64,000 nucleotides of DNA from Herbidospora galbida (GTDB lineage Bacteria; Actinomycetota; Actinomycetes; Streptosporangiales; Streptosporangiaceae), in assembly GCF_005233835.1 (NCBI RefSeq), contig NZ_SZQA01000024.1:1-64000 (forward strand). The letters run 5' to 3'. The notes under the pieces were generated by a model. That model ran no database searches. It was given only the letters and a program-made list of their open reading frames with translations, and had not been told where the DNA came from. The position numbers were made by a program, and so were the translations under genes. The first letter of the stretch is position 1; each line of letters starts with the position of its first letter. Shown here piece after piece: positions 46,349 through 62,172 of the stretch.

Positions 46349-46375
46349 TTCCCACCCAACACAAGGAGAGCCATC

Positions 46376-46699: not shown

Positions 46700-46705
46700 T
46701 TTCGG

Positions 46706-46737: not shown

Positions 46738-46759
46738 CCTGTACGGCTCTCAGATCGTT

Positions 46760-47380: not shown

Positions 47381-47561
47381 GTGACGCCCCTATTCCCGGC
47401 ATTGGTCCCGGCAGTTTTGCTGGAATAGTAGCCGGTGCTCCCGGTCCGAACAGGAATTCGGCGCGCAGCACACGGCGCTTCTCTCATGCTGATACCGATT
47501 GCGGACCGTTCACCCCGCTGCCTTACCCTCTGAATTAACGCCTATGAAACGGAGGTGGACC

Positions 47562-48887
47562 GTGACGAATGAGACGGATCACGGTCGGACACCCGCGACC
47601 CACGGGTCACGCATCGATGCCTACGTCGATCGGTACGCCGCACGAGCTACCGGGATGGTCGCCTCCGAGATCCGAGCTCTGTTCGCCGTCGCCTCGCGTC
47701 CCGAAGTGGTCTCGCTGGCCGGCGGCATGCCCTACGTCACGGCGCTCCCCCTCGACGTGGTCGGCGAACTGGTCGCCGACCTCGTCAACCGCCGAGGCCC
47801 CGAAGCCCTCCAATACGGCTCGGGCCAGGGTGACCCCGCACTGCGCGAGCAGATCTGCGAGGTCATGCGCATGGAGGGCATCGACGCGGGCGCCGACGAC
47901 GTCGTCGTCACGGTGGGCTCGCAGCAGGCGCTCGATCTGATCACCCGCATCTTCGTCGACCCCGGCGACATCGTCCTCGCCGAAGGTCCGTCCTACGTCG
48001 GCGCCCTGGGCACCTTCTCGGCCTACCAGGCCAAGGTCGTCCACATCGCCATGGACGACCAGGGCCTCATTCCCGAGTCCCTGGCCCAGACGATCTACGC
48101 GCTCCAGGCCTCCGGCCAGCGCATCAAGTTCCTCTACACGATCCCGACCTTCCAGAACCCGGCCGGCGTGACCCTGAACCTGGTCCGCCGCCGTCAGGTC
48201 CTGGAGATCTGCCAGAGGGCCGGGATCCTCGTGGTGGAAGACAACCCCTACGGCCTGCTGGGCTTCGACGGAGAGCCGCTCCGCGCCCTGCGCGCCGACG
48301 ACCCCGACGGGGTGGTCTACCTGGGGTCGTTCTCCAAGACCCTGGCACCGGGCTTCCGGGTCGGCTGGGCCCTCGCGCCCCACGCGATCCGCCAGAAGCT
48401 CGTGCTGGCCATGGAGTCCGCGGTCCTGTCGCACTCGACCTTCACGCAGCTGGCCGTCGGGCAATACCTGGCGACGCAGCCGTGGCGGGAGCAGATCAAG
48501 ACCTTCCGCGAGCTCTACCGCGAACGCCGCGACGCCCTGCTCGGCGCACTCGAGACACTGATGCCCGAGGGCTGCACCTGGACCAAACCCGCCGGCGGCT
48601 TCTTCGTGTGGATGACCCTGCCGGAGGGCCTCAACTCGAAGGCCATGCTGCCTCAGGCCGTGGACAAGCGCGTCGCGTTCGTCCCCGGCACAGGCTTCTA
48701 CGCCGACGGGTCGGGCTCCAGGCACATGCGGCTGTCCTACTGCTACCCGCAGCCCGACCGCATCCGCGAGGGCGTCCGGCGGCTCGCCGGCGTCATCGAA
48801 GAAGAGCTCCGGACCGTCGAGATGTTCGGCACCAGGTCCCGGGGTGGTCACTCCGGGGTGGACACCCCCGGTCCAGACCTCGCCTGA
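47562..48887 (+). CDS. PLP-dependent class I/II aminotransferase (ARO8/LysN-like)
   Basis: A 441-residue protein from GTG 47562 (GGAGG at 47551-47555). Fold-type I aminotransferase: SLAGGMPYVTALPLD, LQYGSGQGDPALREQI, VTVGSQQALDLI, FQNPAGVTL, VEDNPYGLLGF, and the PLP lysine in YLGSFSKTLAPGFRVGW. No N-terminal HTH, so it is an enzyme rather than a MocR regulator. Substrate (2-aminoadipate, branched-chain or aromatic) cannot be set from sequence. Confidence 0.93.
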   Translation: MTNETDHGRTPATHGSRIDAYVDRYAARATGMVASEIRALFAVASRPEVVSLAGGMPYVTALPLDVVGELVADLVNRRGPEALQYGSGQGDPALREQICEVMRMEGIDAGADDVVVTVGSQQALDLITRIFVDPGDIVLAEGPSYVGALGTFSAYQAKVVHIAMDDQGLIPESLAQTIYALQASGQRIKFLYTIPTFQNPAGVTLNLVRRRQVLEICQRAGILVVEDNPYGLLGFDGEPLRALRADDPDGVVYLGSFSKTLAPGFRVGWALAPHAIRQKLVLAMESAVLSHSTFTQLAVGQYLATQPWREQIKTFRELYRERRDALLGALETLMPEGCTWTKPAGGFFVWMTLPEGLNSKAMLPQAVDKRVAFVPGTGFYADGSGSRHMRLSYCYPQPDRIREGVRRLAGVIEEELRTVEMFGTRSRGGHSGVDTPGPDLA

Positions 48888-48891
48888 TCCT

Positions 48892-48925
48892 CTGTACGGC
48901 TAGCCTGTTCGGGCTAGCCGTACAG
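48892..48925. repeat. Perfect 14-bp inverted repeat between the aminotransferase and ligase genes
   Basis: CTGTACGGCTAGCC (48892-48905) and GGCTAGCCGTACAG (48912-48925), 6-nt loop. It starts 4 nt after the aminotransferase stop and ends 21 nt before the next ATG. No T run; could be an operator or an RNA hairpin. Confidence 0.6.
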
Positions 48926-48946
48926 GAATCGGAGAAAGGCCGGGCT

Positions 48947-49897
48947 ATGAGCGATCTCGGGCACGTGCTCGTACTGGCAGGAGGACTGTCCTACGAGCGG
49001 GAGGTCTCCATCCGGTCCGGACGACGGGTGGCCGAAGTCCTGCGTGCCCAAGGTGTCGACGTGGAGACCCGCGACACCGACTCCTCCCTGGTTCCCTCGG
49101 TCCTAGCCGACCGGCCCACGGCGGTGTTCGTGACCCTGCACGGCGGAGCCGGCGAGGACGGCGCGATCCGGACCGTCCTGGAGCTTCTCGGGGTGCCTTA
49201 CGTGGGGGCGGCGCCCGACGCCTGCCGGGTGGCCTTCGACAAGCCGACGGCGAAGGCCGTGGTGCGGTCGTGGGGGTTGAACACGCCCGACTCGGTTTCG
49301 CTGCCGAAGGAGACTTTTCACGACCTGGGCGCTTCCGCGGTGCTTTCGCGGATCGTCGACTCACTTGGGTTGCCCCTGTTCGTCAAGCCTTCTCGTGGGG
49401 GGTCGGCGTTGGGGGCCTCGATCGTGAGGTCGGCCGAGGAACTGCCGGCGGCGATGGTGGGGTGTTTCGCGTACGGGGACACCGCGCTGATCGAGACCTA
49501 CATCGAGGGTGTCGAGGTCGCCGTGTCGGTGGTTGACCTGGGGGAGGGGCCAGTGGCGTTGCCTCCTGTGGAGATCGTGCCCGACGGTGGGGCTTACGAC
49601 TACGCGGCTCGGTATACGGCGGGGCGGACTGAGTTCTTCGCGCCTGCTCGGCTGGGGGATGAGGCCATGGCGGCTTGTGAGGCCATGGCTGTGGCGGCGC
49701 ATTCGGCGTTGGGGTTGCGGGATGTGTCGCGGACCGACCTGATCGTGGATGGGGATGGGAAGCCCTGGTTCCTTGAGGTGAACGTGGCTCCTGGGATGAC
49801 GGAGACGTCGTTGCTGCCTATGGCTGCTGAGGCGGCTGGGAAGGATCTGGGGGCGCTTTGTCGGGGGTTGCTGGAGATTGCGGCTGGGCGGGGTTGA
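48947..49897 (+). CDS. D-alanine-D-alanine ligase-like ATP-grasp protein
   Basis: A 316-residue ATP-grasp enzyme from ATG 48947: VLAGGLSYEREVSIRSGRRVAEVL (substrate domain), VFVTLHGGAGEDGAIRTVLELLGVPYVGA, LFVKPSRGGSALGASIV (ATP-binding), and DLIVDGDGKPWFLEVNVAPGMTETSLLPMAA (metal and D-Ala site). Somewhat shorter than canonical Ddl; ligation of D-Ala or a related amino acid is likely. The 3' half (from about 49300) uses unusually many codons ending in G or T. Confidence 0.88.
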   Translation: MSDLGHVLVLAGGLSYEREVSIRSGRRVAEVLRAQGVDVETRDTDSSLVPSVLADRPTAVFVTLHGGAGEDGAIRTVLELLGVPYVGAAPDACRVAFDKPTAKAVVRSWGLNTPDSVSLPKETFHDLGASAVLSRIVDSLGLPLFVKPSRGGSALGASIVRSAEELPAAMVGCFAYGDTALIETYIEGVEVAVSVVDLGEGPVALPPVEIVPDGGAYDYAARYTAGRTEFFAPARLGDEAMAACEAMAVAAHSALGLRDVSRTDLIVDGDGKPWFLEVNVAPGMTETSLLPMAAEAAGKDLGALCRGLLEIAAGRG

Positions 49898-50688
49898 TCG
49901 CGGCCTGGGGGCGCGTTGGGGGCTTCGTAGCGGGGAGCTGGCGGAGCCTCTGTGGCCTTGCCTTAGCCGCGGCGGCTTGAGCGGCCTATCCACGGCTGCG
50001 CCGGGAAAGTGAGTTTCCCGTGTGTGTAGGAGCGCGCTGGGCGCTGTCGGGACGTTGTGGCGCGGCCGCAGTTCTTACGCAGCTTGCGGGGCACCGGGAT
50101 CTCGGCGACAACGGTTTGCCCGGGCCTTATCCACACGCGGCTTGGAAAGCGGGTTCCAGAGAGTTGCCGAGATCGCGGGTGGGAGCTGCCGTGAGAAGAC
50201 AGGTAGCTCGGCAGATTTGCTGCGCCAAGCGGGAGCACGCTCGACGATATAGGCCTACGTAGCGCGGCCCAGCTCTTGCGCGGCCCAGCTACGCGCCAGG
50301 CCCGGCAAGGATGGCGCGAAGCCAAGGACAGCACAAAGTGGCCGTGCGGACCGAGTAGGCAATCTTCCTGATCCGCGGTGAGACCGGCATGGGCTAAGAA
50401 CGAGATATCACGTGCAGAGAGACGTCGCGGCACGGAGACGTCGCGGGCTCGACGCCCGACGGCCACTCGATCCACATGGCGTCCGATCATCTTGGGCCTT
50501 CGCTCACATCCACATCGGAACCGCCTACTCCCCCCTCAATGGATGGAAGCGCTGACTCCGGGACCTCCGAACCGGTCGGTTTCGATTGCTCCGGCCGGTC
50601 CACGGGCGTTGCGTGGCTTTGAGCACGGGGTCGCGGCCAGGTCTGACCTGGGGATCGGGGTGGGAGAGCGCTGACCTAGGCTTGGCGG
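49898..50688. other. 791-bp intergenic region, no supported gene
   Basis: Open frames here (for example minus 49963-50490 and plus 50020-50262) have low-complexity Arg/Ser-rich translations without family features. A direct repeat of GCGCGGCCCAGCT is present twice at 50264-50292. Nothing else is supported. Confidence 0.5.
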
Positions 50689-51720
50689 GTGGTTCATGCG
50701 AAAAGCTTTGGTAGTGACAATCATGCGGGTGTTCATCCCGAGGTGATGGCAGCGGTCGTGGCGGCCAACGACGGTGACACGCTCCCCTATGGCAGCGATC
50801 CCTGGACGGCCGACATGGAGAGCGCCGTCAGGGAGGTCTTCGGGGAGCAGGCGCAGGGTTACGCCATGTTCAACGGGACCGGTGCCAACGTGGTGGGGCT
50901 GGGGTTGATGCTCCGGCCGTACGACGGGGTGGTCTGCCCGGCCAGTGCGCACATCAACGGCAACGAGGCCGGCGCCGCCGAGCGCGTTCTCGGGACGAAA
51001 CTGCTCACCGTGGCGACCGATGACGGGAAGCTCCGCCCGGCCGACGTGCTCGCCCAACTCGGCGCCGTGGGCAACGAGCACCTGTCGCAGCCCCGGGTGG
51101 TGTCCATCTCCCAGGTGACCGAGTGCGGGACGGTCTACACGCCTGAGGAGATCACGGCGCTGGCGGAGGTCGTCCATGAGAACGGCCTCTTCCTCCACAT
51201 GGACGGAGCCAGACTGGCCAACGCGGCCGCCGAGCTCGGCTGCGGCCTGGCCGACATCACGACCGCGGTCGGCGTGGACGTCCTCAGCTACGGCGCGACC
51301 AAGAACGGCGCCCTGGGGGCCGAGGCGCTGATCGTCCTGCGGCCGGAACTCGCGCCTGGGGCGCTCTTCCTCCGCAAGCAGGGCATGCAGCTGGCTTCGA
51401 AGATGCGGTACGTCTCCCCCCAGATCACCGCCCTGCTGCGTGGCGACCTGTGGCTGCGGAACGCCTCGCACGCCAACGCGATGGCACACCGGCTGGCTGA
51501 CGGCGTGGCTTCGGTGGTGAAGTTCCGGTACGAGGTGCAGTCGAACGCGGTGTTTCCGGTGCTGCCGGAGAAGGCGATCGCGTACCTGATGGAGAGGTTC
51601 ACCTTCGGGCATTGGGACCGGGCCGGGGGAGTCGTGCGGTGGGTGACCGCCTTCGACACGACCGAGGATGACGTCGACGCGCTGATCGCGGCTACGCATG
51701 AGGCGCTTAGTTTCACGTGA
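50689..51720 (+). CDS. Threonine aldolase family protein (beta-eliminating lyase)
   Basis: A 343-residue PLP enzyme from GTG 50689, which follows a TAGGCT (50677-50682) by 6 nt and is probably leaderless. SFGSDNHAGVHPEVMAAV, YGSDPWTADME, NGTGANVVGL, LFLHMDGARLANAAAELG and the PLP lysine in SYGATKNGALGAEA match low-specificity L-threonine aldolases. The stop codon is inside a parS site (51710-51723). Confidence 0.92.
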   Translation: MVHAKSFGSDNHAGVHPEVMAAVVAANDGDTLPYGSDPWTADMESAVREVFGEQAQGYAMFNGTGANVVGLGLMLRPYDGVVCPASAHINGNEAGAAERVLGTKLLTVATDDGKLRPADVLAQLGAVGNEHLSQPRVVSISQVTECGTVYTPEEITALAEVVHENGLFLHMDGARLANAAAELGCGLADITTAVGVDVLSYGATKNGALGAEALIVLRPELAPGALFLRKQGMQLASKMRYVSPQITALLRGDLWLRNASHANAMAHRLADGVASVVKFRYEVQSNAVFPVLPEKAIAYLMERFTFGHWDRAGGVVRWVTAFDTTEDDVDALIAATHEALSFT

Positions 51721-51723
51721 AAC
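51710..51723. other. parS site 1
   Basis: GTTTCACGTGAAAC, perfect match to the bacterial ParB-binding palindrome, overlapping the last codons and stop of the threonine aldolase gene. Confidence 0.93.
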
Positions 51724-52228
51724 ATCGCGATGGGGTCGGCTGGAGTCCTGGCTGGCCCCATCTGATGCCCGCCAGAGGTTGATGCATCCCCGCCTATGCG
51801 CGGTGGTTGTTTGGTCGCGCAGAGCTTAGGCACCCGGTTGATGATGGCACCGTGATCCGCTGGCTTCTCCCCGATGGGTAGCCGGGCGATCCTCGCGCTC
51901 ACACCGTTTCCTGAGCTTCCTAAGCGCACTCGCGTCTCGGCCGGTGAACCCAACGTTGCACCCCGCCACAGAGCAACTAGGCTCACCGCCAGCCCTACAC
52001 AGCATGGATGCTCGGATGGCGGCATGCGCCTCGACTTGAGCACTTGAGGCGCGACCTGAACGGACCTCTCAGAGTTCCGTCCGTTGGCGTCCTTTCCGGT
52101 GGGTGAGCAGTACTGATGGCCAGGCCCTCCTCACGCCCCAAGCAAACGATCGCGAACAGAAGGTTGCCGGCTCAGCCTGTTGATTAGCGCGTGAGCTGAG
52201 CACGATCGAGGTGCGGTTGCGACGAGCT

Positions 52229-52287
52229 AGGGCGCCAGCGGCCAGCAGACCACGACCACGGCGAGCCCGATGGCCGCCGCCAGCCAC
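52229..52287 (-). repeat. 59-bp exact copy of an internal part of the MATE gene
   Basis: The reverse complement of 52229-52287 is identical to 20873-20931 (GTGGCTGGCGGCGG... to ...CTGGCGCCCT). Similarity stops sharply at both ends. It encodes only a short MATE fragment and cannot be functional as protein. Confidence 0.9.
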
Positions 52288-52489
52288 CGCGATTAGGTCG
52301 CTTCTCTGGGAGAGAGAACCGCCTATCCCGGTTGACTGTCGATGAGTGACCTCAAGTCGAGCGGTGTTGGCGTCTGGCTGCGGATGCCGTTGCTCTGAGA
52401 GGTGAGGGTCAAGTAGTCCTCGCCGACGTCTGCACCGAGTCGCGAGCACGTCCGCGATTCCTGTCGAGGGAGGCGTGGTTCAGCGCGAT

Positions 52490-52503
52490 GTTTCACGTGA
52501 AAC
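52490..52503. other. parS site 2
   Basis: GTTTCACGTGAAAC in the noncoding region upstream of the kinase-like gene. Confidence 0.93.
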
Positions 52504-52662
52504 GCTGCGACTGAACGGCGGCGCGTCAGCGATGTCGCCGAGGAGGGGGCAGGGGCGCGTCCGCTCCGGAGCCCGTTTCTAACCAGGCGTCCCGTGTCAA
52601 GGCGAACTGGCACCGGAGCCTGACGGGTGGTGCTGTGCAGAGACACCGTGAGAGAGGCAGCT

Positions 52663-53367
52663 ATGAACCAAGGCACCCGCGGCGAGCTCATCAGCCGGCT
52701 GGCGGAGGCGATCAGCTCTGTCACCACGGCGCACCCGCTGCGAATCGCCATCGATGGGCCGCCTGCCGCCGGCAAGACCACGCTGGCCGACGAACTCGCC
52801 GTCGTCCTGCGCGGGCAGGACCGCGACGTCATCCGTGCGACCATCGACGACTTCCTCTTTCCCCGTGCCCAGCGCTACCGACGCGGGCGGTACTCGGCCG
52901 AAGGCTGTTACTTCGACGCCCACGACCACGCCGCGCTGTGCCGAGTCCTGCTCGATCCGCTGGGTCCAGGCGGAGACCGAAGGTTCCAACACACCATCTA
53001 CGACAGAGACACCGACACCTCATCGTCCCCGCCGGCCATGACCGCCGCGGCAGATGCCGTACTGCTCTTTGACGGCGTCTTCCTCCTGCGCCCAGAACTC
53101 GTCGATCGGTGGGACCTACGCATCTTCGTGTCCGTCCCGTTCGAGCAGACGGTAGATCGCGCCCAGGATCGAGGCTCAGCACTGACCGAATCCACTGCTG
53201 ACACCGCCGAGATCGAACGGTCCTGGCGCCATCGCTATATCCCGGCCCAACAGCTCTACTTCGCCACAGCCCGACCAACCGAGCACGCCGACATCCTCGT
53301 GTACAACGATCAGCTCCACCGGCCGACTTGGGAAGTCCGACCACGCTCATCGATACGCAGGATTTAG
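52663..53367 (+). CDS. Uridine-kinase-like P-loop NTPase
   Basis: A 234-residue protein from ATG 52663 (AGAGAGG upstream). P-loop GPPAAGKTT near the N terminus, DDFLFPRAQRYRRGRYSAEGCYFDAHDH matching the uridine kinase/phosphoribulokinase substrate region, VLLFDGVFLLRPEL (Walker B) and RDRGSALTES-like lid. Phosphorylation of a small molecule is likely; the substrate is unknown. It is the only intact gene between the threonine aldolase and parB, and its codon use is less extreme than its neighbours, so recent acquisition is possible. Confidence 0.85.
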   Translation: MNQGTRGELISRLAEAISSVTTAHPLRIAIDGPPAAGKTTLADELAVVLRGQDRDVIRATIDDFLFPRAQRYRRGRYSAEGCYFDAHDHAALCRVLLDPLGPGGDRRFQHTIYDRDTDTSSSPPAMTAAADAVLLFDGVFLLRPELVDRWDLRIFVSVPFEQTVDRAQDRGSALTESTADTAEIERSWRHRYIPAQQLYFATARPTEHADILVYNDQLHRPTWEVRPRSSIRRI

Positions 53368-53601
53368 CGATTGCTCTCCTCGCTGCCTCTCAATCTCCTG
53401 GGCCTACGTGCCGTCTCCAGCGGGCGGCCGGCCGAGAAGCAGCGTCCTGCCCGCGCTCGCGCACACTCAGGCGTAGCCCGATCGTGCCCTTCCCGCAGCA
53501 GCACGGTCGAACCTCACCATCGGACAGACGAGTCGCGCCGATGTCTGTGCGAGCGTCACCGCCGGGGCGATGTTGAGCCCGGCATGCCCTTGGCGAAGAA
53601 G

Positions 53602-53838
53602 CTACGAAGCACCCCGAGATCCCCCCAGCGGGAGGCTGCGGTGGAAGTGCGGGGCGGGTCCGCTGGGTTGGCGCCCATGTCCCAGCTGGTAGAGGGTGAA
53701 CATGCCGTCGGTGGTGGCACCGGTTGTGAAGTAGGTGCAGCTGCCGCCGTTCTGGTAGGTGATGTAGGGCGGGGCGCCGTGCGGGAGGTAGGTGGCGTTG
53801 ATCTCCTCCTGCACCACACGAAAGGGCTGGGATCCCAC
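53602..53838 (-). pseudogene. Truncated cupin-domain protein remnant
   Basis: The minus-strand frame from 53838 reads about 78 residues ending shortly after the cupin metal motif: ...PPYITYQNGGSCTYFTTGATTDGMFTLYQLG...GPAPHFHRS, then LPLGGSRGAS and stop. Cupin-domain proteins continue for about 70 further residues after HFHR, which are absent. A 234-bp stretch (53368-53601) beyond it holds nothing recognisable. Likely a decayed gene. Confidence 0.65.
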
Positions 53839-53952
53839 GGCCGAGCTTCAGGTGAGACGAAGTCCGTCGCTGCTGGCCGGGCTCCCGATCTCAAGGACCC
53901 TCGATTGTCGCCGCATACGCAATGACCCCCAGGCCTTGGTTTGAAGGAGCCT

Positions 53953-53966
53953 GTCTCACATGAGAC
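53953..53966. other. Degenerate parS in the array
   Basis: GTCTCACATGAGAC, three mismatches from the consensus, two of them symmetric so that much of the palindrome is kept. Confidence 0.6.
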
Positions 53967-54378
53967 CAAGTCCCTCCCCCTGGCTAGGCCCCACCCCCTG
54001 AGAAAGGCTTCGAGGGGTTCTCGCCACGTAACAACTTTTGCGCCCATGCCTGACAGAGCTGCTTTCGTGGAGACACCATGTGCTCCTCCTGACGGCTGGG
54101 CTCCCTACCCCAAGAGACTGCAAGTGTCGGCGCGTACGCCAAGCTCTCGGGCTCACCTTCGAAGGAGCTCGTCTCAGGAGAAACCGAGTCCGGGGCTACG
54201 GCTACGCCCCACCTTCGAGAGGCCCTTAGACGGCCCCGCAACGCAAAGCTGCCCGGGCCACGCTCGACGTGCTCGCAGACGTGAAAGGAATCCGTCCCTG
54301 ATGGCCGGGCTTCCCATTCCGAATCGGGCTCACAGCCGTCCCTGCAGCCGCAAGCTCCCGGCCCAGGCCTGGGCACTC

Positions 54379-54392
54379 GTTTCACGTGAAAC
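54379..54392. other. parS site 3
   Basis: GTTTCACGTGAAAC, perfect, within the tandem array. Confidence 0.93.
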
Positions 54393-54481
54393 CAGGCCCG
54401 CCGCGGCTCGGTGCCCATCCCCGAAGAGGCCCTGAGAGGTCCCCGCCGTGCCAGCTCCCCCGACCCCACGCTCACGGAACT

Positions 54482-54495
54482 TGTTCACGTGAGAC
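54482..54495. other. Degenerate parS in the array
   Basis: TGTTCACGTGAGAC, three mismatches, keeps the central TTCACGTGA. Confidence 0.6.
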
Positions 54496-54560
54496 GAAGT
54501 CCGGCCCCTAGTCGTCCCCGCCGCCACATGCTGCCGGGGCCCAGGTCGGGGGAGCAGCTC

Positions 54561-54574
54561 GTTTCACGTGAAAC
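54561..54574. other. parS site 4
   Basis: GTTTCACGTGAAAC, perfect, within the tandem array. Confidence 0.93.
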
Positions 54575-54672
54575 CGAGTCCCTCCACGGGCCAGGCTCTC
54601 AACCCCGAATAAGCACCCCGGTGACCCCCACCACGCAAAAGCTCCCCCGAATCCACGTCCGAGGGAGCCTGT

Positions 54673-54686
54673 GTTTCACGTGAAAC
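54673..54686. other. parS site 5
   Basis: GTTTCACGTGAAAC, perfect; it abuts the parB stop codon (54687-54689). Confidence 0.93.
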
Positions 54687-55661
54687 CTAGTCGTTCTCCT
54701 GGTCTCGCATCTGGTTAGCCGCGTCCGGTGCCATCGTCCCAATGATGCGCTCAAGGTCGTCGATCGTGGAGAACTCCACCACGATCCGCCCTTTCCGACG
54801 CCCTAAATCGACCTTCACCTTGGTCTCGAAGTGGTCCGACAGCCGATCCGCCAGCGTCCGCAGCGCCGGCGCCACCGGCTGCTTCGTCCGCGGCTTCCGG
54901 GGAGCGGGGCCAGCCGTCGCCTCCCCCAGCGACACGATCTCCTCTACCGTCCGGACCGTCATGCCTTCCTTCACGATCCGGGTAGCCAGGTGCTCCTGCG
55001 CCTCCGGGCTGTCCAGGGACAGCAGGGCCCTCGCGTGGCCGGGAGTGATGGAGCCGGCGGCCAGGCGGCGCTGGACGTTCGGGGGGAGGTTCAGCAGGCG
55101 CAGGGTGTTGGTGATGTGGGAGCGGGAGCGGCCGATCTTCTTGGCCAGTTGCTCGTGGGTGGCGCCGAAGTCGTCGAGGAGCTGGCGGTAGGCGGCGCCT
55201 TCTTCGAGGGAGTTGAGCTGCTCTCGCTGGAGGTTCTCGATCAGGGCCTCGCGCAGCATCTCGTCGTCGCCCGTGCTGCGGACGATCGCGGGGATGCGTT
55301 CCAGGGCGGCCAGGCGACTGGCACGGAGCCGGCGCTCGCCCATGATCAGTTCGAACTGGTCCTTGCCGTATTCGTCTACTCCGGCTGCGCGGACGACGAT
55401 CGGCTGGAGGAGGCCGACTTCCAGGATCGAGTCGGCCAGTTCGCGGATGCGGTCGTCGTCGAAGACCGATCGGGGCTGGCGGCGGTTCGGGATGATCTGG
55501 GTGACGGCGATCTCGTGGAAGTAGGCCCCGGCCACCGGGATCAGGTCCCGGTCACCCGGTGGAGTAGGGGCCGGCACGCCGACGACCGATGGGTCGACGA
55601 TGGGGCCGGTGGGGATGAGGGCTCCCAAACCCTTGCCGAGCCCCCGACGCTGCTGACTCAC
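54687..55661 (-). CDS. parB: Chromosome partitioning protein ParB
   Basis: CTP-dependent clamp that loads at parS and spreads to organise the origin. A 324-residue protein from GTG 55661: N-terminal RGLGKGLGALIP (ParA-stimulating motif), CTPase motifs QPRSVFDDDRI and LIMGERRLRASRLA with ENLQREQLN, HTH (THEQLAKKIGRSRSHITNTLRLLNLP) and C-terminal dimerisation domain rich in Lys/Arg (KVKVDLGRRKGRIVVEFSTIDDLERI). Downstream of parA with 112 nt between. Surrounded by parS sites. Confidence 0.97.
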   Translation of the reverse strand: MSQQRRGLGKGLGALIPTGPIVDPSVVGVPAPTPPGDRDLIPVAGAYFHEIAVTQIIPNRRQPRSVFDDDRIRELADSILEVGLLQPIVVRAAGVDEYGKDQFELIMGERRLRASRLAALERIPAIVRSTGDDEMLREALIENLQREQLNSLEEGAAYRQLLDDFGATHEQLAKKIGRSRSHITNTLRLLNLPPNVQRRLAAGSITPGHARALLSLDSPEAQEHLATRIVKEGMTVRTVEEIVSLGEATAGPAPRKPRTKQPVAPALRTLADRLSDHFETKVKVDLGRRKGRIVVEFSTIDDLERIIGTMAPDAANQMRDQEND

Positions 55662-55682
55662 CCTTGCTCCTCACCCGCACCG

Positions 55683-55749
55683 AAACGCCGCATGGCTGAT
55701 CTCCGTCAGCCCGTCGTACCGAAACGCCGCGTCGTTTCTCAAACGCCGC
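55683..55749. repeat. Triple 9-bp direct repeat between parA and parB
   Basis: AAACGCCGC occurs at 55683, 55722 and 55741 in the 112-bp parA-parB gap, twice preceded by CCG. Unknown function; possibly a regulator site. Confidence 0.4.
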
Positions 55750-55773
55750 GCACGATTGTAAGAGGCTACAGGT

Positions 55774-56715
55774 TCACGCTTCCGCGACAGCGGCACCGCG
55801 ATAGGCGATCTCTCGTGCCGCGTCCATGTAGGCCATCGCGCCGCTCGAACCCGGGTCGTAGGTCATGACCGACTGGCCATAACTGGGCGCCTCGGACACC
55901 CGAACGCTTCGGGGGATGACCGCGTCGACCACGGTGGCGCCGAAGTGGGAGCGGACCTCTTCCGCCACCTGGGAGGCCAGGCGGGTGCGGCCGTCGTACA
56001 TCGTCAGCAGGATGGTCGACACGTTCAGGGTCTGGTTCAGGTGGACGCGGACCAGCTCGACGTTCTGGAGGAGCTGGGTCAGGCCTTCCAGGGCGTAGTA
56101 CTCGCACTGGATGGGGATCAAGACTTCCTGCGCCGCGGCCAGGGCGTTGACCGTCAGCAGGCCCAGCGACGGCGGGCAGTCGATCAGGATGTAGTCCATC
56201 TGCGCCGACTCGTATGCCGCGAACGCGCGCCGCAACCGGGTCTCACGGCCCACCATCGGCACCAGTTCGATCTCCGCGCCGGCCAGGTCGAGGGTGGCGG
56301 GAGCGCAGAACAGGCCCGGCATGTCCGGGACCTGGGTCACGATCGACTCCATCGGGAGGTCTTCCACGAGGACCTGATAAATGGAAGGTGTCCCGGCTCG
56401 GTGTTCGGTGGCCAAAGCCGTCGAGGCGTTGCCCTGCGGGTCGAGGTCGACCACGAGGACCCGCAGCCCGTGCATCGAGAGGGCCGCGGCCAGGTTGACG
56501 GCGCTGGTCGTCTTGCCCACCCCGCCCTTCTGGTTGCAAATGCAGATCACTCGGGTCTTGGGCGGGCGTGGCCAGTCGCCGTCGCGGCGAGCGGAGTATC
56601 CGACGGGGCCGTCGGCGGCCGGCTTGCCGGGCGCGGCTGTTTCACGTGAAACCACAGAACTCAGTGCCTCTCGAACCAGCGGGGAATCACCGGGGCTTAG
56701 CGGGGGCTGGGACAC
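55774..56715 (-). CDS. parA: Chromosome partitioning ATPase ParA
   Basis: A 313-residue deviant-Walker ATPase from GTG 56715. About 50 N-terminal residues precede the core, with VVSRETAAPG coded by a parS site. Core: ICICNQKGGVGKTTSAVNLAAALS, VVDLDPQGNASTAL, YILIDCPPSLGLLTVNALAAA, IPIQCEYYALEGL, and the DNA-binding Arg region. Partner of ParB in origin movement. Confidence 0.97.
   Translation of the reverse strand: MSQPPLSPGDSPLVREALSSVVSRETAAPGKPAADGPVGYSARRDGDWPRPPKTRVICICNQKGGVGKTTSAVNLAAALSMHGLRVLVVDLDPQGNASTALATEHRAGTPSIYQVLVEDLPMESIVTQVPDMPGLFCAPATLDLAGAEIELVPMVGRETRLRRAFAAYESAQMDYILIDCPPSLGLLTVNALAAAQEVLIPIQCEYYALEGLTQLLQNVELVRVHLNQTLNVSTILLTMYDGRTRLASQVAEEVRSHFGATVVDAVIPRSVRVSEAPSYGQSVMTYDPGSSGAMAYMDAAREIAYRGAAVAEA
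56639..56652. other. parS site 6, inside the parA coding sequence
   Basis: GTTTCACGTGAAAC encodes V-S-R-E-T in the N-terminal extension of ParA, so the site is conserved in both DNA and protein senses. Confidence 0.93.
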
Positions 56716-56869
56716 CTTGGTCGTCCTTTCGACCGGCCTTGGCCGGTGGTTCGGAGCGGGAGTGCGGCCCCACCCCCATCAGGCCGCGCTCGTCGCGTCG
56801 CCGCGAGTCTTTCGGGTCGTCCCGGGTTGATTCAACAGGGTCGTTCGATCGTTCCCGGCCCGACCGCGA

Positions 56870-57547
56870 TTACCTCTTACGTCGGCGCTGTGCAGCTCGT
56901 GAACCGGCGCCGGCGATGACGCGGACAAGAGTTGCAGGCGGATCGACTTTACCGCGCCCGACCGTGACAAGCTCGGCCGTCTTTGCCCCGTGAGCGGACA
57001 ATTGGGTGTCGGCGCCCGCCAATTCTTCGGCAGCTCGTTCACCCTTCATCGCCAGCAGCTCTCCGCCCTCGCGGAGCAGGGGGAGCGACCAGGCGAGCAG
57101 GCGATCGAGCGGGGCGACGGCCCTGGCGGTGGCGACGTCGAAGGTGCGTTTGCCCTTCAGCTCCTCGGCCCGGCCGCGGAGCACCTCGACGTTCTGCAAC
57201 TTGAGGGTCTCCACGCACTCTTCGAGGAAGACGGTGCGCCTGAGCAACGGTTCGAGCAGCGTCACCGTCACATCGGGGCGGACGATCGCCAGGACGATGC
57301 CCGGCAGGCCCGCGCCCGAGCCGATGTCGACGAGTTTCACGTCTGGCGGCACCGCTTCGGCGATCACGGCACAGTTCAACAGGTGGCGATCCCAGATCCG
57401 GGGAACTTCCCGAGGGCCGAGCAGCCCACGCACCACCCCCGGCCCGGCCAGCAGGGAGGCGTAGGTTTCCGCCTGGGCCAAGGCCTCGCCCGCGAACACC
57501 GCGTTGGCGGCTTCGGGGGGCTGCTGGTTGCTCATTTCTTCGGTCAT
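56870..57547 (-). CDS. rsmG: 16S rRNA (guanine(527)-N7)-methyltransferase
   Basis: A 225-residue SAM methyltransferase (GidB) modifying G527 of 16S rRNA; loss gives low-level streptomycin resistance. Start ATG 57547 follows TACCCT (57560-57555 on the minus strand) by 7 nt, so it may be leaderless, though GAGGG is also next to the start. Motifs: WDRHLLNCAVIAEAVP, LVDIGSGAGLPGIVLAI, VEVLRGRAEEL, FDVATARAVAPL. Standard place between jag and parA. Confidence 0.96.
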   Translation of the reverse strand: MTEEMSNQQPPEAANAVFAGEALAQAETYASLLAGPGVVRGLLGPREVPRIWDRHLLNCAVIAEAVPPDVKLVDIGSGAGLPGIVLAIVRPDVTVTLLEPLLRRTVFLEECVETLKLQNVEVLRGRAEELKGKRTFDVATARAVAPLDRLLAWSLPLLREGGELLAMKGERAAEELAGADTQLSAHGAKTAELVTVGRGKVDPPATLVRVIAGAGSRAAQRRRKR

Positions 57548-57588
57548 CCCTCGTAGGGTATCGGGCGGCGGACGACAGCCAGGAAGCC

Positions 57589-57632
57589 TGTGGATAAACC
57601 TGTGGATACTGCGGTGTGTGTCCTGTGGACAA
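57589..57632. promoter_or_regulatory. Three DnaA-box-like sites upstream of rsmG
   Basis: TGTGGATAA (57589-57597), TGTGGATAC (57601-57609) and TGTGGACAA (57624-57632) in the 179-bp gap between jag and rsmG. Confidence 0.5.
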
Positions 57633-57726
57633 CAGTGCGCGGCTGGCCAAAAGCGCAGGCGTAAGCCGTACAGAACAAGAAAACCGCCGACCCGGGACGG
57701 GGCGGCGGTTTCCACAGGGTGGAGTA

Positions 57727-58221
57727 TCAGGCGGGCAGGACCACGACGAAACGCCGGGGCTCCTCCCCCTCTGACTCGCTGCGCAGGCCGGCGGCGGCGA
57801 CGGCGTCGTGGATGACCTTGCGCTCGAACGGCGTCATCGGCTTGAGGGCCTTCGGCTCGCCCGACGCCTTGACGTCGTCGACGGCGGCCATGCCGATCTT
57901 GGTGAGTTCCGCGCGGCGGCGCTCGCGGTAACCGGCGACGTCGAGCATCAGCCGCGAGCGCTCGCCGGTCTGCCGGTGGACGGCCAGGCGGGTCAGCTCC
58001 TGTAGCGCCTCCAGGACTTCCCCGCCGGGGCCGACCAGGTCGCCGCCCTTGAGGCCGATCACGGAGACGAGGGCGCGGTCGCCTTCGACGTCCATGTCGA
58101 TGTCGCCGTCGAGGTCGGCTATGTCGAGCAGCCCTTCGACGTAGTCGGCGGCGATCTCGCCCTCCTGCTCCAGGGCGGCGACGCTCGGAGCCGCCTTGAC
58201 GGTCTCCTCGGCTTCGGTCAC
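57727..58221 (-). CDS. jag: Jag/SpoIIIJ-associated RNA-binding protein (KH-R3H)
   Basis: A 164-residue protein from GTG 58221 (AGGGAG 7 nt upstream; GTG 58239 overlaps the yidC stop). KH-like domain with GLKGGDLVGPGGEVLEALQELTRLAVHRQ and R3H domain ending ALKPMTPFERKVIHDAVAAAGLRSESEGEEPRRFVVV. RNA-binding partner of YidC; conserved next to it in most bacteria. Confidence 0.95.
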   Translation of the reverse strand: MTEAEETVKAAPSVAALEQEGEIAADYVEGLLDIADLDGDIDMDVEGDRALVSVIGLKGGDLVGPGGEVLEALQELTRLAVHRQTGERSRLMLDVAGYRERRRAELTKIGMAAVDDVKASGEPKALKPMTPFERKVIHDAVAAAGLRSESEGEEPRRFVVVLPA

Positions 58222-58235
58222 GTGGGAACTCCCTC

Positions 58236-59183
58236 TCACGACTTCTTGCTGCCGGTCCGCTTGCTACGTGGTTGCCGCGTCGGCTGCTGACGGACGATCT
58301 TAGGCTCTGGCTCCGCCGGCTGCTCGGGCGCGGGCGGGGTCTTGCGGAAGCGCGCGAAGAAGCCCGGCTTGACCTCGACGGGGATCAGGTTGCCCTTGGC
58401 GTCGAACTGCGGCATCGGGTTGCGGCTGTAGAACCAGTGCTGCTGGCCGAGAGTCCACACGTTGGTGGTGACCCAGTAGAGGATCAGGCCCAGCGGGAAG
58501 TTCAGGGAGAACACGGCGAACAGCGGCGAGATGTACATCAGGATCTTCTGCTGCTGCGCCATGGGGTTGTCCGGCATCTGCGCCATCGAGCGGGTCACGC
58601 TCTGCCGGACGGTCAGGAACGTCGTCAGCGACGAGATCGCGACGAAGATGACCAGGACGATCTTGGCGACGACCGGGTCGGCGCCGTACTTCTCGATGTC
58701 GGCGGCGCTGGTGAAGAACGTCGCCGGGAGCGGGGCGCCGAAGATGTGGGCGGCGCGGGCGCTGTCGACAAGTTCCTGGGTCATGCCGAAGCGGGGCTGA
58801 CCGTGGGCCATCGCGTTCAGCACCGTGAACATCGAGATGAAGATCGGGAACTGCGCGATGACCGGCAGACAGCCACCGAGGGGGTTGGCGCCCGCCTCCT
58901 GGTAGACGCGCATGACCTCCTGGTTCATGCGCTGCTTGTCGTTCTTGTAACGCTTGCGCAGATCCTGAACCTTGGGCGCGAGCTCCTGCATCTTCTTCGA
59001 GGAGCGCATCTGCTTCAAGAAGAGCGGGAAGATCAGCACTCGCATCAGCACGGTCAACGTGATGATGGTCAACGCCCAGTTCAGCCCGTTGTCGGGGCTG
59101 AGGACGAGGCTGTAGAAGTTGTGAATATGGGTGATCACCCAGGCGATGGCCGTATACAGCCAGTTCAGCCAGGACAGCTCCAC
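58236..59183 (-). CDS. yidC: Membrane protein insertase YidC
   Basis: A 315-residue YidC/Oxa1 insertase from GTG 59183. Short N terminus without the large periplasmic domain of gammaproteobacteria. Core helices: ALTIITLTVLMRVLIFPLFLKQMRSSKKMQELAPKVQDLRKRYKNDKQ (with the hydrophilic-groove Arg), GGCLPVIAQFPIFISMFTVLNAM, and FPLGLILYWVTTNVWTLGQQ. Basic C-terminal tail for ribosome contact. Operon rpmH-rnpA-yidD-yidC-jag. Confidence 0.97.
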   Translation of the reverse strand: MELSWLNWLYTAIAWVITHIHNFYSLVLSPDNGLNWALTIITLTVLMRVLIFPLFLKQMRSSKKMQELAPKVQDLRKRYKNDKQRMNQEVMRVYQEAGANPLGGCLPVIAQFPIFISMFTVLNAMAHGQPRFGMTQELVDSARAAHIFGAPLPATFFTSAADIEKYGADPVVAKIVLVIFVAISSLTTFLTVRQSVTRSMAQMPDNPMAQQQKILMYISPLFAVFSLNFPLGLILYWVTTNVWTLGQQHWFYSRNPMPQFDAKGNLIPVEVKPGFFARFRKTPPAPEQPAEPEPKIVRQQPTRQPRSKRTGSKKS

Positions 59184-59187
59184 CGAG

Positions 59188-59466
59188 CTAGCTCCCTTGC
59201 TTGTCGTGGGGTCGAGGGGGCACGGGATCGAACCCGCCGGGGTGGAAGGGATGGCATCGGCCGATGCGACGGATGGTCAACCACACCCCGCGCAGCGCCC
59301 CGTGCACGGCGATCGCCTCGAGACCGTACGCGCTGCAAGAGGGGAAGAAGCGGCATCGAGGCCCCAGGAGAGGACTGATGAACGCCCGGTAGAACCTGAT
59401 CGGGACGATCAATACGCGGGCAGCAGTCGACACCGGCGTGACCGGCTGGGGCTGCTCGGTTGTCAT
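59188..59466 (-). CDS. yidD: Membrane protein insertion efficiency factor YidD
   Basis: A 92-residue protein: [65 protein letters not shown], the full family signature with conserved Cys. ATG 59466 overlaps the rnpA stop as ATGA; 4 nt separate it from yidC. Confidence 0.97.
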
Positions 59467-59819
59467 GACCGTCCATCCCGCGGCCGCCCGATCAATCGCT
59501 GGAGCGCGACATCGAGATCGGCGGCCAGGTGCTCGCTGCGCGCGGACGCGGCCGGTGGGTTGGCGCGTACCACCAGCAGGCTACCTCTCGGAAGGAGGTG
59601 CAGACGTGCCCGCATCAGGTGTCTGAGTCTCCGCTTGACCCTGTTCCTGGTGACCGCGTCACCCACGGCCTTACTGACGACGAACCCGACGATCGGGGCC
59701 TCGTCGGCCTCCACAGCGGTGAAGTGGACGACCAGGGAGGGTCTACCGGCGCGGCGCCCGCGCCGGATCGCCTCGGCGAACTCCTCGCCTTTGCGCATGC
59801 GGGAAGCGGGCGGGAGCAC
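59463..59819 (-). CDS. rnpA: Ribonuclease P protein component
   Basis: A 118-residue basic protein from GTG 59819 ([21 protein letters not shown] 7 nt upstream); the TTG at 59837 is an unlikely start. RNR signature: [26 protein letters not shown]. Partner of the RNase P RNA. Overlaps yidD by 4 nt. Confidence 0.96.
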
Positions 59820-59887
59820 CGGATACTTCCTTAACAAGTAGCCCGCCGTCAGAGATGACGGCGGGCGGGGCTGCTACGAAGTGCCGG

Positions 59888-60025
59888 TCAGACGGTGAGG
59901 TCGTGACGGCCCTTGCGGCGGCGGGCGGCCAGGATGGCGCGGCCGGCGCGGGTGCGCATGCGGAGCCGGAAACCGTGGGTCTTCGCGCGACGGCGGTTGT
60001 TCGGCTGGAAAGTACGCTTGCTCAC
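59888..60025 (-). CDS. rpmH: 50S ribosomal protein L34
   Basis: A 45-residue protein from GTG 60025, translated by hand: [18 protein letters not shown], then [21 protein letters not shown] and HDLTV. It opens the rpmH-rnpA-yidD-yidC-jag block and is divergent from dnaA. Confidence 0.97.
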
Positions 60026-60178
60026 GATGGGCTCCAGGCTAGATGTGCCCTGTCGTTAGGGCGATTAGACCAAGTTTACGGCCCACCGGGCACAGGGCAT
60101 GCGAAAGAGCCGTCCCGAGAAAGCCGACCGGGTCACGTTACGGGGTACACGCCCGAATGGTCAAACCGGCACCCCCAG

Positions 60179-60417
60179 TTTTCCACAGGCTGTGGGGTTA
60201 TCCACACGGTCCTTGGTCATCCACATCCTGTGGGCAACGGGTGCCAGTAGGCTGTGGACAACGTCTTGAACGCAGGTCGCGCACACCGCTACTGTCAGGC
60301 GTCCAGGCCTTCCCTCCACACCCAGAGCACCTGTGGATCTCCTGTGGATCTTCTGTGGAAACTCACAGCGGGGGCCGGCGCCACCGGGACCAGACCGGGC
60401 GAGGCGGGTGTGGATAA
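60179..60417. promoter_or_regulatory. DnaA-box-rich dnaA upstream region
   Basis: Within the 443-bp rpmH-dnaA gap: TTTTCCACA (60179), TTATCCACA (60198), TCATCCACA (60217), TGTGGGCAA (60230), TGTGGACAA (60253), TGTGGATCT (60332 and 60343), TGTGGAAAC (60354), TGTGGATAA (60409). DnaA autoregulation of its promoter is expected. No exact promoter was fixed. Confidence 0.75.
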
Positions 60418-60468
60418 CGACACGCGGCGAGCGACCAATGGAACCGCGTCAGGGAGGAGTGCCGAACG

Positions 60469-62172
60469 GTGGACGGCGTCGACCTCAACCAGCTGTGGGC
60501 GAGAGCGCTCACCACACTCCTCGATCAGGGAGTTTCGGGTCAGCAGCGTGCGTTCCTGCAGATGACGCAGCCGTCCGGGCTGATCAACGACACGATTCTG
60601 CTGGCCGCCCCCAACGACTTCGCCAAAGAGGTCATCGAGGTGCGGTTGCGGCCGCTCATCATGCAGGCGCTGTCACAGGAGTTCGGCCGGCCGGTCCGCA
60701 TCGCGGTGATGGTCGATCCGACCGCGACCCAGGCGGAGCCCAAGCAGCAGAACTACGGCCGTCCGGGTGGTTTTCCCCAGAGTGGCGGTCCGGCTTTTCC
60801 CCAGACCGGTACGCCCGGCTTTCCCCAGAGCACCCCGTCGGGTGGTTTTCCCCAGGGCGGCGCTCCCGGCGGTTATCCCCAGAACACCGGATCCGGTGGT
60901 TTTCCCCAGGCTGGGGATCATGGCTTTCAACAGCCTGTGCAATCTCCGCAGGGCTTCGGCCAGGGGTTTCATCAGGAGTCCCCAGAGCAGCAGGCTGATT
61001 TTCCACAGGGTCGCCCACAGGGAGTCCCAGGTGCGCCGCCGCCCGCCGAGCAGCCGTACACGCAATATCCACAGGCTGAGGAGAAGAACGACAAGGCGCC
61101 GCCCCGGCCCTCCGGCGGCAAGCAGGGGGAGCCCGCGCGGCTGAACGCCAAGTACACCTTTGAGACGTTCGTCATCGGTGCCAGCAACCGGTTCGCCCAC
61201 GCGGCGGCGGTCGCGGTGGCCGAGGCGCCGGCGAAGGCGTACAACCCACTCTTCATCTATGGGGACTCAGGGCTGGGGAAGACGCACCTTCTCCATGCGA
61301 TCGGTCACTACGCGCAGAGCCTGTATGAAGGTGCGCGGGTGCGGTACGTGAGCTCCGAGGAGTTCACCAACGACTTCATCAACAGCATCCGCGACCACAA
61401 GGCCGACGGGTTCCGGGCGCGCTTCCGGGCTGTGGACATCCTCCTCGTGGACGACATCCAGTTCCTTGAGGGCAAGGAGCAGACGCAGGAGGAGTTCTTC
61501 CACACCTTCAACACCCTCCACAACAGCAGCAAGCAGATCGTGATCAGCAGTGACCGGGCGCCGAAGCAGCTCGTCACGCTGGAGGACCGGCTCCGCAACC
61601 GCTTCGAGTGGGGGCTGATCACCGACGTGCAGCCGCCCGAGCTCGAGACGCGCATCGCGATCCTGCGGAAGAAGGCGATCCAGGAGGGCCTGGCCGCGCC
61701 GCCCGACGTGCTGGAGTACATCGCCAGCCGGATCGCCACCAACATCCGCGAGCTCGAAGGCGCACTAATAAGGGTGACGGCCTTCGCGTCGCTCAACCGG
61801 CAGTCGGTCGACATCGGGCTGACCGAGATCGTGCTGAAGGACCTCATCACCGAGGACAGCTCCAGCACCGAGATCACGATCGCGCTCATCATGTCCACGA
61901 CCGCGGAGTACTTCGGCGTCTCGCTCGACGACCTGTGCGGCGGATCGCGCTCGCGGGCCCTCGTGGTGGCCCGTCAGATCGCCATGTACCTGGCCCGGGA
62001 GCTCACCGACCTCTCGCTGCCGAAGATCGGCGCCCAGTTCGGCGGCCGTGACCACACCACTGTTATGCACAGCGAGCGGAAGATCCGCTCCCTGATGGCC
62101 GAGCGGCGCTCGATGTACAACCAGGTCAACGAGCTGACGACCCGGATCAAGCAGCGCGCGCGCACCTCTTGA
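60469..62172 (+). CDS. dnaA: Chromosomal replication initiator protein DnaA
   Basis: A 567-residue initiator from GTG 60469 (GGGAGGAG upstream). Domain I residues 1-95 ([30 protein letters not shown]); domain II is a long repetitive linker (about 98-226) of G-F-P-Q repeats; domain III AAA+ with Walker A GDSGLGKT (265-272), Walker B LLVDDIQF (D328-D329), sensor regions ([12 protein letters not shown]); domain IV with the DnaA signature starting D528 ([12 protein letters not shown]). The long linker is typical of actinomycetes, but its codon choice is unusual (see findings). Confidence 0.98.
60771..61073 (+). repeat. DnaA-box-like nonamers encoded by the dnaA linker repeats
   Basis: TTTTCCCCA at 60771, 60795, 60846 and 60900, CTTTCCCCA at 60819, TTATCCCCA at 60873, TTTTCCACA at 60999 and ATATCCACA at 61065, all in phase with F/Y-P-Q codons. 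TTATCCCCA also occurs in oriC at 62467. Confidence 0.6.

What the first reader, a model, noticed from the sequence alone, without database searches (positions are those of the whole stretch)
53845..54686. Tandem array of parS-headed repeat units, intact and decayed, beside parB
Nine parS or parS-like sequences stand 79-114 bp apart, and the DNA between them is itself related from unit to unit (AGTCC after the site, a GGCCGGGCTCCC-like block, a CCCCGA-like block, a CGCAAAGCTCCC-like block before the next site). Three units carry the perfect palindrome; the rest carry versions with three or more changes. This suggests that parS has multiplied by tandem duplication of a ~100-bp unit and then decayed, or that graded-affinity sites are kept deliberately. 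parS clusters near oriC are well known; a degenerate tandem array of this form is, as far as I know, not commonly described.
Basis: partly seen in the sequence, partly recalled or inferred. Interest (0 to 1): 0.8.

Follow-up and report, generated by a model that had tools for sequence, protein, structure and literature searches.

The report
Decayed tandem array of parS sites
Next to its parB gene this actinobacterium carries eight old, diverged tandem copies of a stretch holding a chromosome-segregation site (parS); three sites are still perfect and the rest look like relics, which suggests that bacterial centromere clusters can grow by tandem duplication and then decay.

Summary
Nine parS or parS-like sites lie at 53845-54686, 79-112 bp apart: three perfect 14-mers, four with 3 changes, two recognisable only by register. 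With sites removed, the intervals are still related: each of eight units beats 300 of 300 shuffles in a leave-one-out profile test. Self-similarity peaks at one, two and four unit lengths, so growth may partly have been in ~210-bp dimers.

The host is a Herbidospora species. The six congeners held have just two parS in the ~250 bp after parB and five perfect sites genome-wide; this genome has six. The unit resembles their first interval: end of parB, parS, terminator hairpin, spacer. The hairpin survives only beside parB. Perfect sites amid strongly diverged spacers suggest selection on them; the others look like relics rather than graded-affinity sites, though three of them fit the site consensus somewhat better than their spacers do.

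Other genera have unrelated parS tandem arrays downstream of parB, from 99% identical to decayed. But tandem repeats without parS are commoner there, so parS need not drive amplification. Nearest analogues: F-plasmid sopC and the Myxococcus parS cluster. ParB binding is untested.

The parts
54687..55661 (-). parB (324 aa), reads towards the array
   Evidence: Pfam ParB_N, HTH_ParB, ParB_C; the only ParB match in this genome at E<=0.001
55774..56715 (-). parA; a perfect parS lies inside it at 56639-56652
   Evidence: ORF, parS; name read from the translation, no family search was run on it
54581..54692 (-). unit u1: parB stop region, perfect parS 54673-54686, intact terminator-like hairpin, spacer
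54639..54670 (-). terminator-like hairpin after parB (40-nt fold -20.8, z -3.6); its counterpart in six congeners is an uninterrupted 13-14 bp stem (G-U allowed)
54502..54580 (-). unit u2 (short, 79 bp): perfect parS 54561-54574
54399..54501 (-). unit u3: degenerate parS 54482-54495 (3 changes, CACGTG core kept)
54294..54398 (-). unit u4: perfect parS 54379-54392
54191..54293 (-). unit u5: very degenerate site at 54274-54287 (6 changes), found by register
54080..54190 (-). unit u6: degenerate parS 54171-54184 (3 changes)
53973..54079 (-). unit u7: wrecked site near 54060-54073, placed by register only
53865..53972 (-). unit u8: degenerate parS 53953-53966 (3 changes)
53845..53864 (-). terminal degenerate parS (3 changes); the DNA beyond it is not a unit
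   Evidence: u9 spacer: 0 bits
53608..53844 (-). gene fragment abutting the array; residues 13-72 are 78% identical to part of a 197-aa open frame elsewhere in this genome
   Evidence: no Pfam match
52490..52503 (.). perfect parS outside the array
51710..51723 (.). perfect parS at the 3' end of the threonine-aldolase-like gene (50689-51720, +)
   Evidence: Pfam Beta_elim_lyase
52627..53367 (+). kinase-like gene on the far side of the array, convergent with parB
   Evidence: Pfam Cytidylate_kin2, E 1.5e-13

Best explanation
The array is a tandem amplification of the first interval after parB (end of parB, parS, terminator-like hairpin, ~45-bp spacer; ~105 bp), grown to eight units, partly perhaps in ~210-bp dimers, and since decayed; among the seven Herbidospora genomes held only this one has it. 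Shown: homology of the units, their likeness to the congeners' first interval, absence of the array in six congeners, loss of the stable hairpin in every copy but the first, and three perfect sites. Inferred: (1) the duplications arose by slippage or unequal recombination in the non-coding slot between convergent genes, on this lineage; (2) ParB loads and spreads from the three perfect sites like any parS; (3) the perfect sites are kept by selection while the other six are relics bound weakly (54482 at most) or not at all; (4) the array does not change how segregation works, only the local number of loading sites, by about one.
For: Unit homology with parS removed. The whole-unit profile hits the first interval of all six congeners: yilanensis 43.1, solisilvae 40.0, daliensis 35.9, sakaeratensis 27.0, mongoliensis 25.6, cretacea 20.6 bits, the last three over the first ~50 positions only; the best other locus gets 14.9 (listing cut at 61 rows). 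All six congeners have two perfect parS close after parB (88-121 bp apart, 251 in mongoliensis). Between 140 and 1400 bases after parB the spacer profile does not beat shuffles in five of the six; daliensis gives 5.2 bits against a 95% shuffle value of 3.7. Five perfect parS genome-wide in each of six congeners, six here. Hairpin z -4.4 to -7.0 in the congeners and -3.6 in u1, but -0.8 to 1.1 in u2-u8. In u1, u2 and u4 34% of 53 spacer columns agree, yet all 14 parS columns do: 2.7e-7 if columns were independent. Unrelated arrays downstream of parB in other genera, young to decayed.
Against: Source: with parS left out, the spacer profile recognises the first interval in only three of six congeners, weakly (E 0.00098, 0.011, 0.03). 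Age: array spacers are only 0.71 identical among themselves by a gapped measure whose shuffle floor is 0.665, while the window's first-interval spacer is 0.72-0.82 identical to that of five congeners compared (with the hairpin part left out 0.62-0.78 against 0.71 in the array). So the array looks as old as the species split or older, which sits badly with a recent gain; it may have been lost in other lines, or this DNA turns over fast. The tree leaves the order of the window's line, solisilvae-yilanensis and sakaeratensis-daliensis unresolved (support 0.076). Decay: u3, u6 and u8 fit the site consensus better than the spacer consensus. Selection: u2 and u4 are each other's closest spacers (0.75), so one perfect site may simply be a younger copy, and gene conversion is possible. 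parS as driver: 57 TRF rows with fewer than two parS-like sites against 4 with (in 33 and 4 distinct slots). Dimers: parity test 4 of 70, and lags that fit no unit multiple also rise a little (44-55 z 2.5, 272-283 z 2.7, 464-475 z 3.1).
Confidence: 0.74

Rival explanations
1. Graded-affinity array: degenerate sites are kept by selection as weak ParB sites that tune loading, spreading or SMC loading.
For: In P. aeruginosa sites with two mismatches bind ParB with ordered, lower affinity (PMC4368675, passages). 54482 keeps the CACGTG core and 53953 is changed symmetrically at two positions. u3, u6 and u8 fit the site consensus (0.71, 0.79, 0.79) better than the spacer consensus (0.63, 0.63, 0.60). 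Herbidospora genomes share one-mismatch variants tens of kb away, so weak sites may be kept in this genus.
Against: Nothing at 1 or 2 changes in the array; pairwise, degenerate sites are as diverged as their spacers (0.53 against 0.51); the cores of 53845, 53953 and 54171 are broken; the array is missing from six congeners.
Confidence: 0.12
2. The whole array is under selection as an extended ParB-loading platform or a spacer/insulator between convergent genes, so unit number matters more than each site.
For: In vitro, condensation by ParB on B. subtilis-type parS grew with parS number and needed between 5 and 7 sites (PMC8299390, passages). Arrays recur in other genera.
Against: Only one perfect site more than congeners; hairpin no longer stable in seven of eight units; arrays without parS are commoner in the slot.
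Confidence: 0.1
3. No duplication: parS sites arose or were kept independently and the interval likeness is GC-rich chance.
For: Tandem Repeats Finder sees nothing. Most parS clusters looked at in the family show no clear likeness between intervals: of 45 chains, 7 reach z 3.5 in some pair, one of them the window itself (some genomes appear twice).
Against: the parB-end bases GACT recur before 6 of 9 sites.
Confidence: 0.02
4. The array is a relic of an integrated plasmid or phage centromere.
For: Plasmid centromeres such as sopC are tandem repeats (PMC6238139, passage); a gene fragment abuts the array.
Against: The unit resembles the resident parB-proximal interval of congeners, down to the parB stop region; no second ParB match in the genome.
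Confidence: 0.02

Closest known systems
F plasmid sopC (parS_F): twelve 43-bp tandem repeats containing ten 16-bp inverted repeats (PMC6238139, passage)
   Same: Head-to-tail units carrying a ParB-site palindrome, with some repeats lacking the motif
   Different: Here on the chromosome, unit ~105 bp, a different palindrome, units strongly diverged, six of nine sites broken
Myxococcus xanthus chromosomal parS cluster: 22 repeats in 3 kb, ~4 kb upstream of parA (PMC3899335, passages)
   Same: Dense chromosomal parS cluster by parAB
   Different: In the passages seen nothing is said of related intervals or decayed units; I did not test its intervals
Caulobacter crescentus parS locus, called tandem parS sequences adjacent to parAB (PMC4368675, passage)
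   Same: Tandem chromosomal parS beside the par operon
   Different: Named in one sentence there; no decayed units mentioned; not examined here
Streptomyces coelicolor parS sites, up to 20-23 in such genomes (PMC7333895, passage)
   Same: Same phylum and same palindrome (recalled)
   Different: Six perfect sites here; the surplus is local and degenerate
Pseudomonas aeruginosa parS hierarchy (PMC4368675, abstract and passages)
   Same: Perfect and imperfect sites in one genome
   Different: Imperfect sites there are not described as tandem relics
parS tandem arrays found here in other Streptosporangiaceae: L179/G018, L194/G126, L119/G233, L127/G080, L103/G044, L048 Microtetraspora sp. NBRC 13810
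   Same: parS-headed units with related spacers, all downstream of parB, from ~30 bp to ~1.7 kb away
   Different: Unit lengths about 187, 104, 49, 70, 100 and 29 bp and unlike sequences by eye, so most simply separate events

Membership tests
Chromosomal ParABS (parS type) | parS palindrome GTTTCACGTGAAAC enriched at the par locus | tested here: met
   Six perfect copies in 8.31 Mb, all within 5 kb of each other in the window
Chromosomal ParABS (parS type) | ParB with ParB_N and HTH_ParB domains next to parA | tested here: met
   Pfam on ParB; parA read from the ORF list, no family search on it
Chromosomal ParABS (parS type) | ParB binds these sites and spreads | not testable with these tools
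   Needs ChIP-seq or EMSA
Tandem-repeat centromere (sopC-like) | Head-to-tail units with related intervals, each with a ParB palindrome | tested here: met
   Related intervals; palindromes perfect in three of nine, broken in six
Tandem-repeat centromere (sopC-like) | Carried by a plasmid with its own Sop/ParAB_F proteins | tested here: not met
   Sole ParB match in the genome lies here; neighbours read as chromosomal from the ORF list, not searched
Higher-order (multimer) satellite repeat | Stronger likeness at multiples of n monomers than at one | tested here: inconclusive
   z 5.8 at two units (176-187 and 212-223) and at four (428-439), 3.3 at one, 1.5 or less near three, but 3.1 at 464-475, which fits none; parity test 4 of 70
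Graded-affinity parS sites | Imperfect sites conserved beyond the level of their surroundings | tested here: inconclusive
   Pairwise 0.53 sites against 0.51 spacers among five degenerate units, but u3, u6 and u8 fit the site consensus better than the spacer consensus

The most novel reading that the evidence does not exclude
The chromosomal centromere of Streptosporangiaceae turns over like satellite DNA: in the slot downstream of parB, parS-bearing units are repeatedly amplified in tandem, sometimes as dimers, then purged or left to decay, and this cycle sets parS number and clustering. The window shows its old, decayed stage and G018 its young one.
Probability: 0.35. Interest if true: 0.68.

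Novelty: new variant of a known kind. Interest (0 to 1): 0.5.

Why it matters
A 2020 review asks why parS number varies when one site is often enough, and what drives parS clustering over evolutionary time (PMC7333895, passages). Here is sequence evidence that tandem duplication of a parS-bearing unit is one route, with stages from 99% identical (G018) to nearly erased (this window). It also gives a natural series of intact and broken sites in one genome for testing what ParB tolerates.

Tried and rejected
Tandem Repeats Finder on the array: nothing. Protein coding in the array: four ORFs that overlap it in whole or part give no Pfam match, and five of the eight unit lengths are not multiples of three. 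Rfam at gathering score over 44000-64000: nothing. A second class of site (GTCTCACGTGAGAC) in the genome: 23 places at up to 2 mismatches, six of them the perfect parS sites and one in the array, which leaves 16 against 4 for the reversed control; an excess I did not follow up, so a second class is not ruled out. The degenerate 14-mer of 53845 also occurs in Acrocarpospora phusangensis L030 between intact sites; unexplained, perhaps coincidence. Decayed units beyond the second parS of congeners: none convincing. parS-driven amplification: not supported. In the first 1500 bases of 128 distinct slots TRF gives 57 rows with fewer than two parS-like sites (56 with none, one with one: the G126 array) and 4 with two or more, while 16.4% of slot bases lie within 60 bp of a parS (overlapping periods make separate rows; by slot 33 against 4). 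A parS-plus-terminator fusion as a general rule: of 80 loci, 66 have a parS (up to 1 change) within 400 bp after parB; an uninterrupted stem of 12 or more pairs follows it in six Herbidospora, three Acrocarpospora (L030, L038, L040) and L024.

Census limits: the 60 unnamed slots were chosen by hand from the roughly 150 places listed (287 of 295 genomes matched), going down the list from the 72% identity level and leaving out several, among them G015, G158, G170, G233 and G277 already known to carry clusters; so one search gives no unbiased frequency. Thirteen of 141 slots were duplicates and six are shorter than 1500 bases. L085 (z 5.9) was looked at and left as unclear. The pattern searches need three perfect sites in a row and did not hit this window's own genome.

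Odds: best explanation from 0.77 to 0.74, graded affinity from 0.10 to 0.12, plasmid relic from 0.01 to 0.02.

Full report
Place. The window is contig C34 of an 8.31-Mb genome. Its ParB is 97% identical to those of Herbidospora solisilvae and H. yilanensis and 82-96% to four other Herbidospora, so it is a Herbidospora species; which one I could not tell. The array lies between parB (minus strand) and a kinase-like gene (plus strand), that is, between convergent genes. Genes beyond parA read like rsmG, an R3H protein, yidC and rnpA (names read from ORF translations, not searched), which points to oriC nearby.

The sites. Only six perfect parS 14-mers exist in the genome, all in the window and three of them in the array. 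The array adds four sites with exactly three changes, one with six, and one so wrecked that I placed it by register. Shuffles of the region give no site at 0-2 changes and 0.017 at three.

The intervals. With parS and six neighbouring bases removed, the eight intervals align far better than shuffles: 1461.5 against 931.5, sd 36.5. A profile built without the tested unit still recognises it in all eight cases (300 of 300 shuffles beaten, spacer only); the stretch beyond the last site is not recognised. With sites masked, 8-mer matches peak at lags of one unit (104-115, z 3.3), two units (176-187, z 5.8, which includes the short unit; 200-211, z 3.9; 212-223, z 5.8) and four units (428-439, z 5.8), with little near three (284-319, z -1.3 to 1.5); smaller rises at 44-55 (2.5), 272-283 (2.7) and 464-475 (3.1) fit no multiple. 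Even-lag pairs score higher than odd ones (mean z 4.1 against 2.7), and the closest spacers are u2-u4 (0.75) and u6-u8 (0.62). A parity test on aligned identities is weaker, 4 of 70. I read this as growth partly by ~210-bp dimers, with moderate confidence.

Where the unit comes from. In all six named congeners parB ends at the bases GACTAG, followed at once by a perfect parS and an uninterrupted 13-14 bp hairpin (G-U allowed), then a spacer, then a second perfect parS 88-121 bp on (251 in mongoliensis). Further parS sites follow only 1.3 kb or more beyond. A profile of whole window units finds the first interval in all six (20.6 to 43.1 bits; along most of its length in three, over the first ~50 positions in the others); the best other locus gets 14.9 bits. 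With parS left out the likeness is weaker: three of six at E 0.00098, 0.011 and 0.03. The GACT of the parB end stands before 6 of 9 array sites. The simplest reading is that the array units are copies of the parB-terminal parS-terminator interval. The hairpin is stable in u1 (z -3.6) and the congeners (z -4.4 to -7.0) but not in u2-u8 (z -0.8 to 1.1), as expected if only the copy next to parB still ends its transcript.

History. The six congeners have neither the array nor convincing remnants of it, and each has five perfect parS genome-wide against six here. In a tree of the region from parB to rnpA the window's line lies inside the genus, though its order relative to two other pairs is unresolved (support 0.076), so one gain is simpler than several losses. 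Against a recent gain: array spacers are 0.71 identical among themselves by a measure whose shuffle floor is 0.665, lower than the window's first spacer against congeners (0.72-0.82; 0.62-0.78 without the hairpin part, against 0.71 in the array). Either the array is about as old as the species, or this DNA turns over fast. parB identity at four-fold sites is 0.86 to yilanensis, so neutral change is not small.

Selection. In u1, u2 and u4 34% of 53 spacer columns agree in all three while 14 of 14 parS columns do. This fits selection, or conversion, on the perfect sites; but u2 and u4 are close to each other, so one may be a younger copy. Among five degenerate units sites are hardly better conserved than spacers (0.53 against 0.51), yet u3, u6 and u8 fit the site consensus (0.71-0.79) better than the spacer consensus (0.60-0.63), a consensus to which the perfect sites contribute. 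No site stands at one or two changes. On balance this favours decay over deliberate grading. By contrast, one-mismatch variants recur in the genus: the CATGTG-core variant occurs in all seven genomes, about 25-33 kb from parB in the six where it shares a contig with parB, and GTTTCACGTGGAAC about 52-56 kb away in four. These are better candidates for weak sites kept on purpose. I did not check whether they lie in genes.

How far it goes. In 295 family genomes, three perfect parS in a row occur at spacings of 89-119 bp in 4, 22-52 bp in 16 and 53-83 bp in 11, 28 different genomes in all. Most of the clusters examined show no clear likeness between intervals. Among 45 chains, z of 3.5 or more in some pair was seen in G044, G277, G170, G158, G233 and G080 besides the window itself; the 29-bp array of Microtetraspora sp. 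NBRC 13810 (L048, and L109 from G015, taken to be the same genome) has spacers too short for such values but nearly identical ones. All of these lie downstream of parB, adjacent or within about 1.7 kb. In a second set of 141 parB-downstream slots (128 distinct) the strongest were G018 (187 bp x 3.9 copies, 99% match, four perfect sites, the first about 80 bp after the ParB match), the window, G126 (decayed, like the window) and the 29-bp array. G233 has a 49-bp array beside parB with sites at 0, 1 and 4 changes. Unit lengths differ and the sequences look unlike by eye, so I take these as separate events; I did not test them against each other.

A caution. In the same slots TRF gives 57 rows with fewer than two parS-like sites and 4 with two or more, or 33 slots against 4. 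The slot tolerates tandem repeats in general, and parS is carried along when it lies inside. The claim that parS multiplies itself is not supported; the claim that tandem duplication is one source of parS clusters is.

Known work. Tandem centromeres are known from F plasmid sopC (PMC6238139, passage), a 22-site parS cluster from M. xanthus (PMC3899335, passages), a tandem parS locus is mentioned for C. crescentus, and a hierarchy of imperfect sites is described for P. aeruginosa, where any one of four oriC-proximal sites suffices (PMC4368675, abstract and passages). A review leaves open what drives parS clustering (PMC7333895, passages). My ten literature searches listed no paper on a degenerate tandem parS array on a chromosome; three of them listed only part of what they found, the library is open-access only, and a main survey of parS distribution (Livny 2007) is not held.

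Verdict.

Noticed in passing
L179 (G018:C2:1609367-1612967), 28-763 bases after the ParB match: 187-bp unit repeated 3.9 times at 99% match, with four perfect parS: a young parS array in another genus.
   Followed up: partly
G000:C34:83832 and G000:C34:107898, with counterparts in congeners: One-mismatch parS variants: the CATGTG-core one occurs in all seven Herbidospora genomes, 25-33 kb from parB in six; GTTTCACGTGGAAC lies about 52-56 kb away in four. Candidate conserved weak sites; coding overlap not checked.
   Followed up: no
54639-54686 and congeners; L030, L038, L040, L024: The parS after parB is flush or nearly flush with a strong terminator-like hairpin in Herbidospora, three Acrocarpospora and Microbispora oryzae.
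   Followed up: partly
53608-53844: Fragment of a gene whose intact-looking relative (197-aa open frame, 78% identical over 60 residues) lies elsewhere in the same genome, at G000:C1:9150-9329.
   Followed up: partly
L119 (G233) 1501-2078; L127 (G080) 1501-1918; L194 (G126): Other parS arrays with mixed intact and decayed sites at about 49, 70 and 104 bp periods.
   Followed up: partly
L043 (Thermocatellispora tengchongensis), first 1.5 kb after parB: Several large tandem repeats without parS (periods 65, 98, 128 and 174 bp) in the parB-downstream slot.
   Followed up: no
L153, L151 (G221, G242), first 250 bases after parB: Clusters of six and five parS-like sites of GTTCCACGTG or GTTTCACGTGGAAC type, all one or two changes from the window's palindrome; perhaps a different preferred parS in that lineage.
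   Followed up: no
whole genome G000: GTCTCACGTGAGAC at up to 2 mismatches: 16 places outside the perfect parS sites and the array, against 4 for the reversed control.
   Followed up: no
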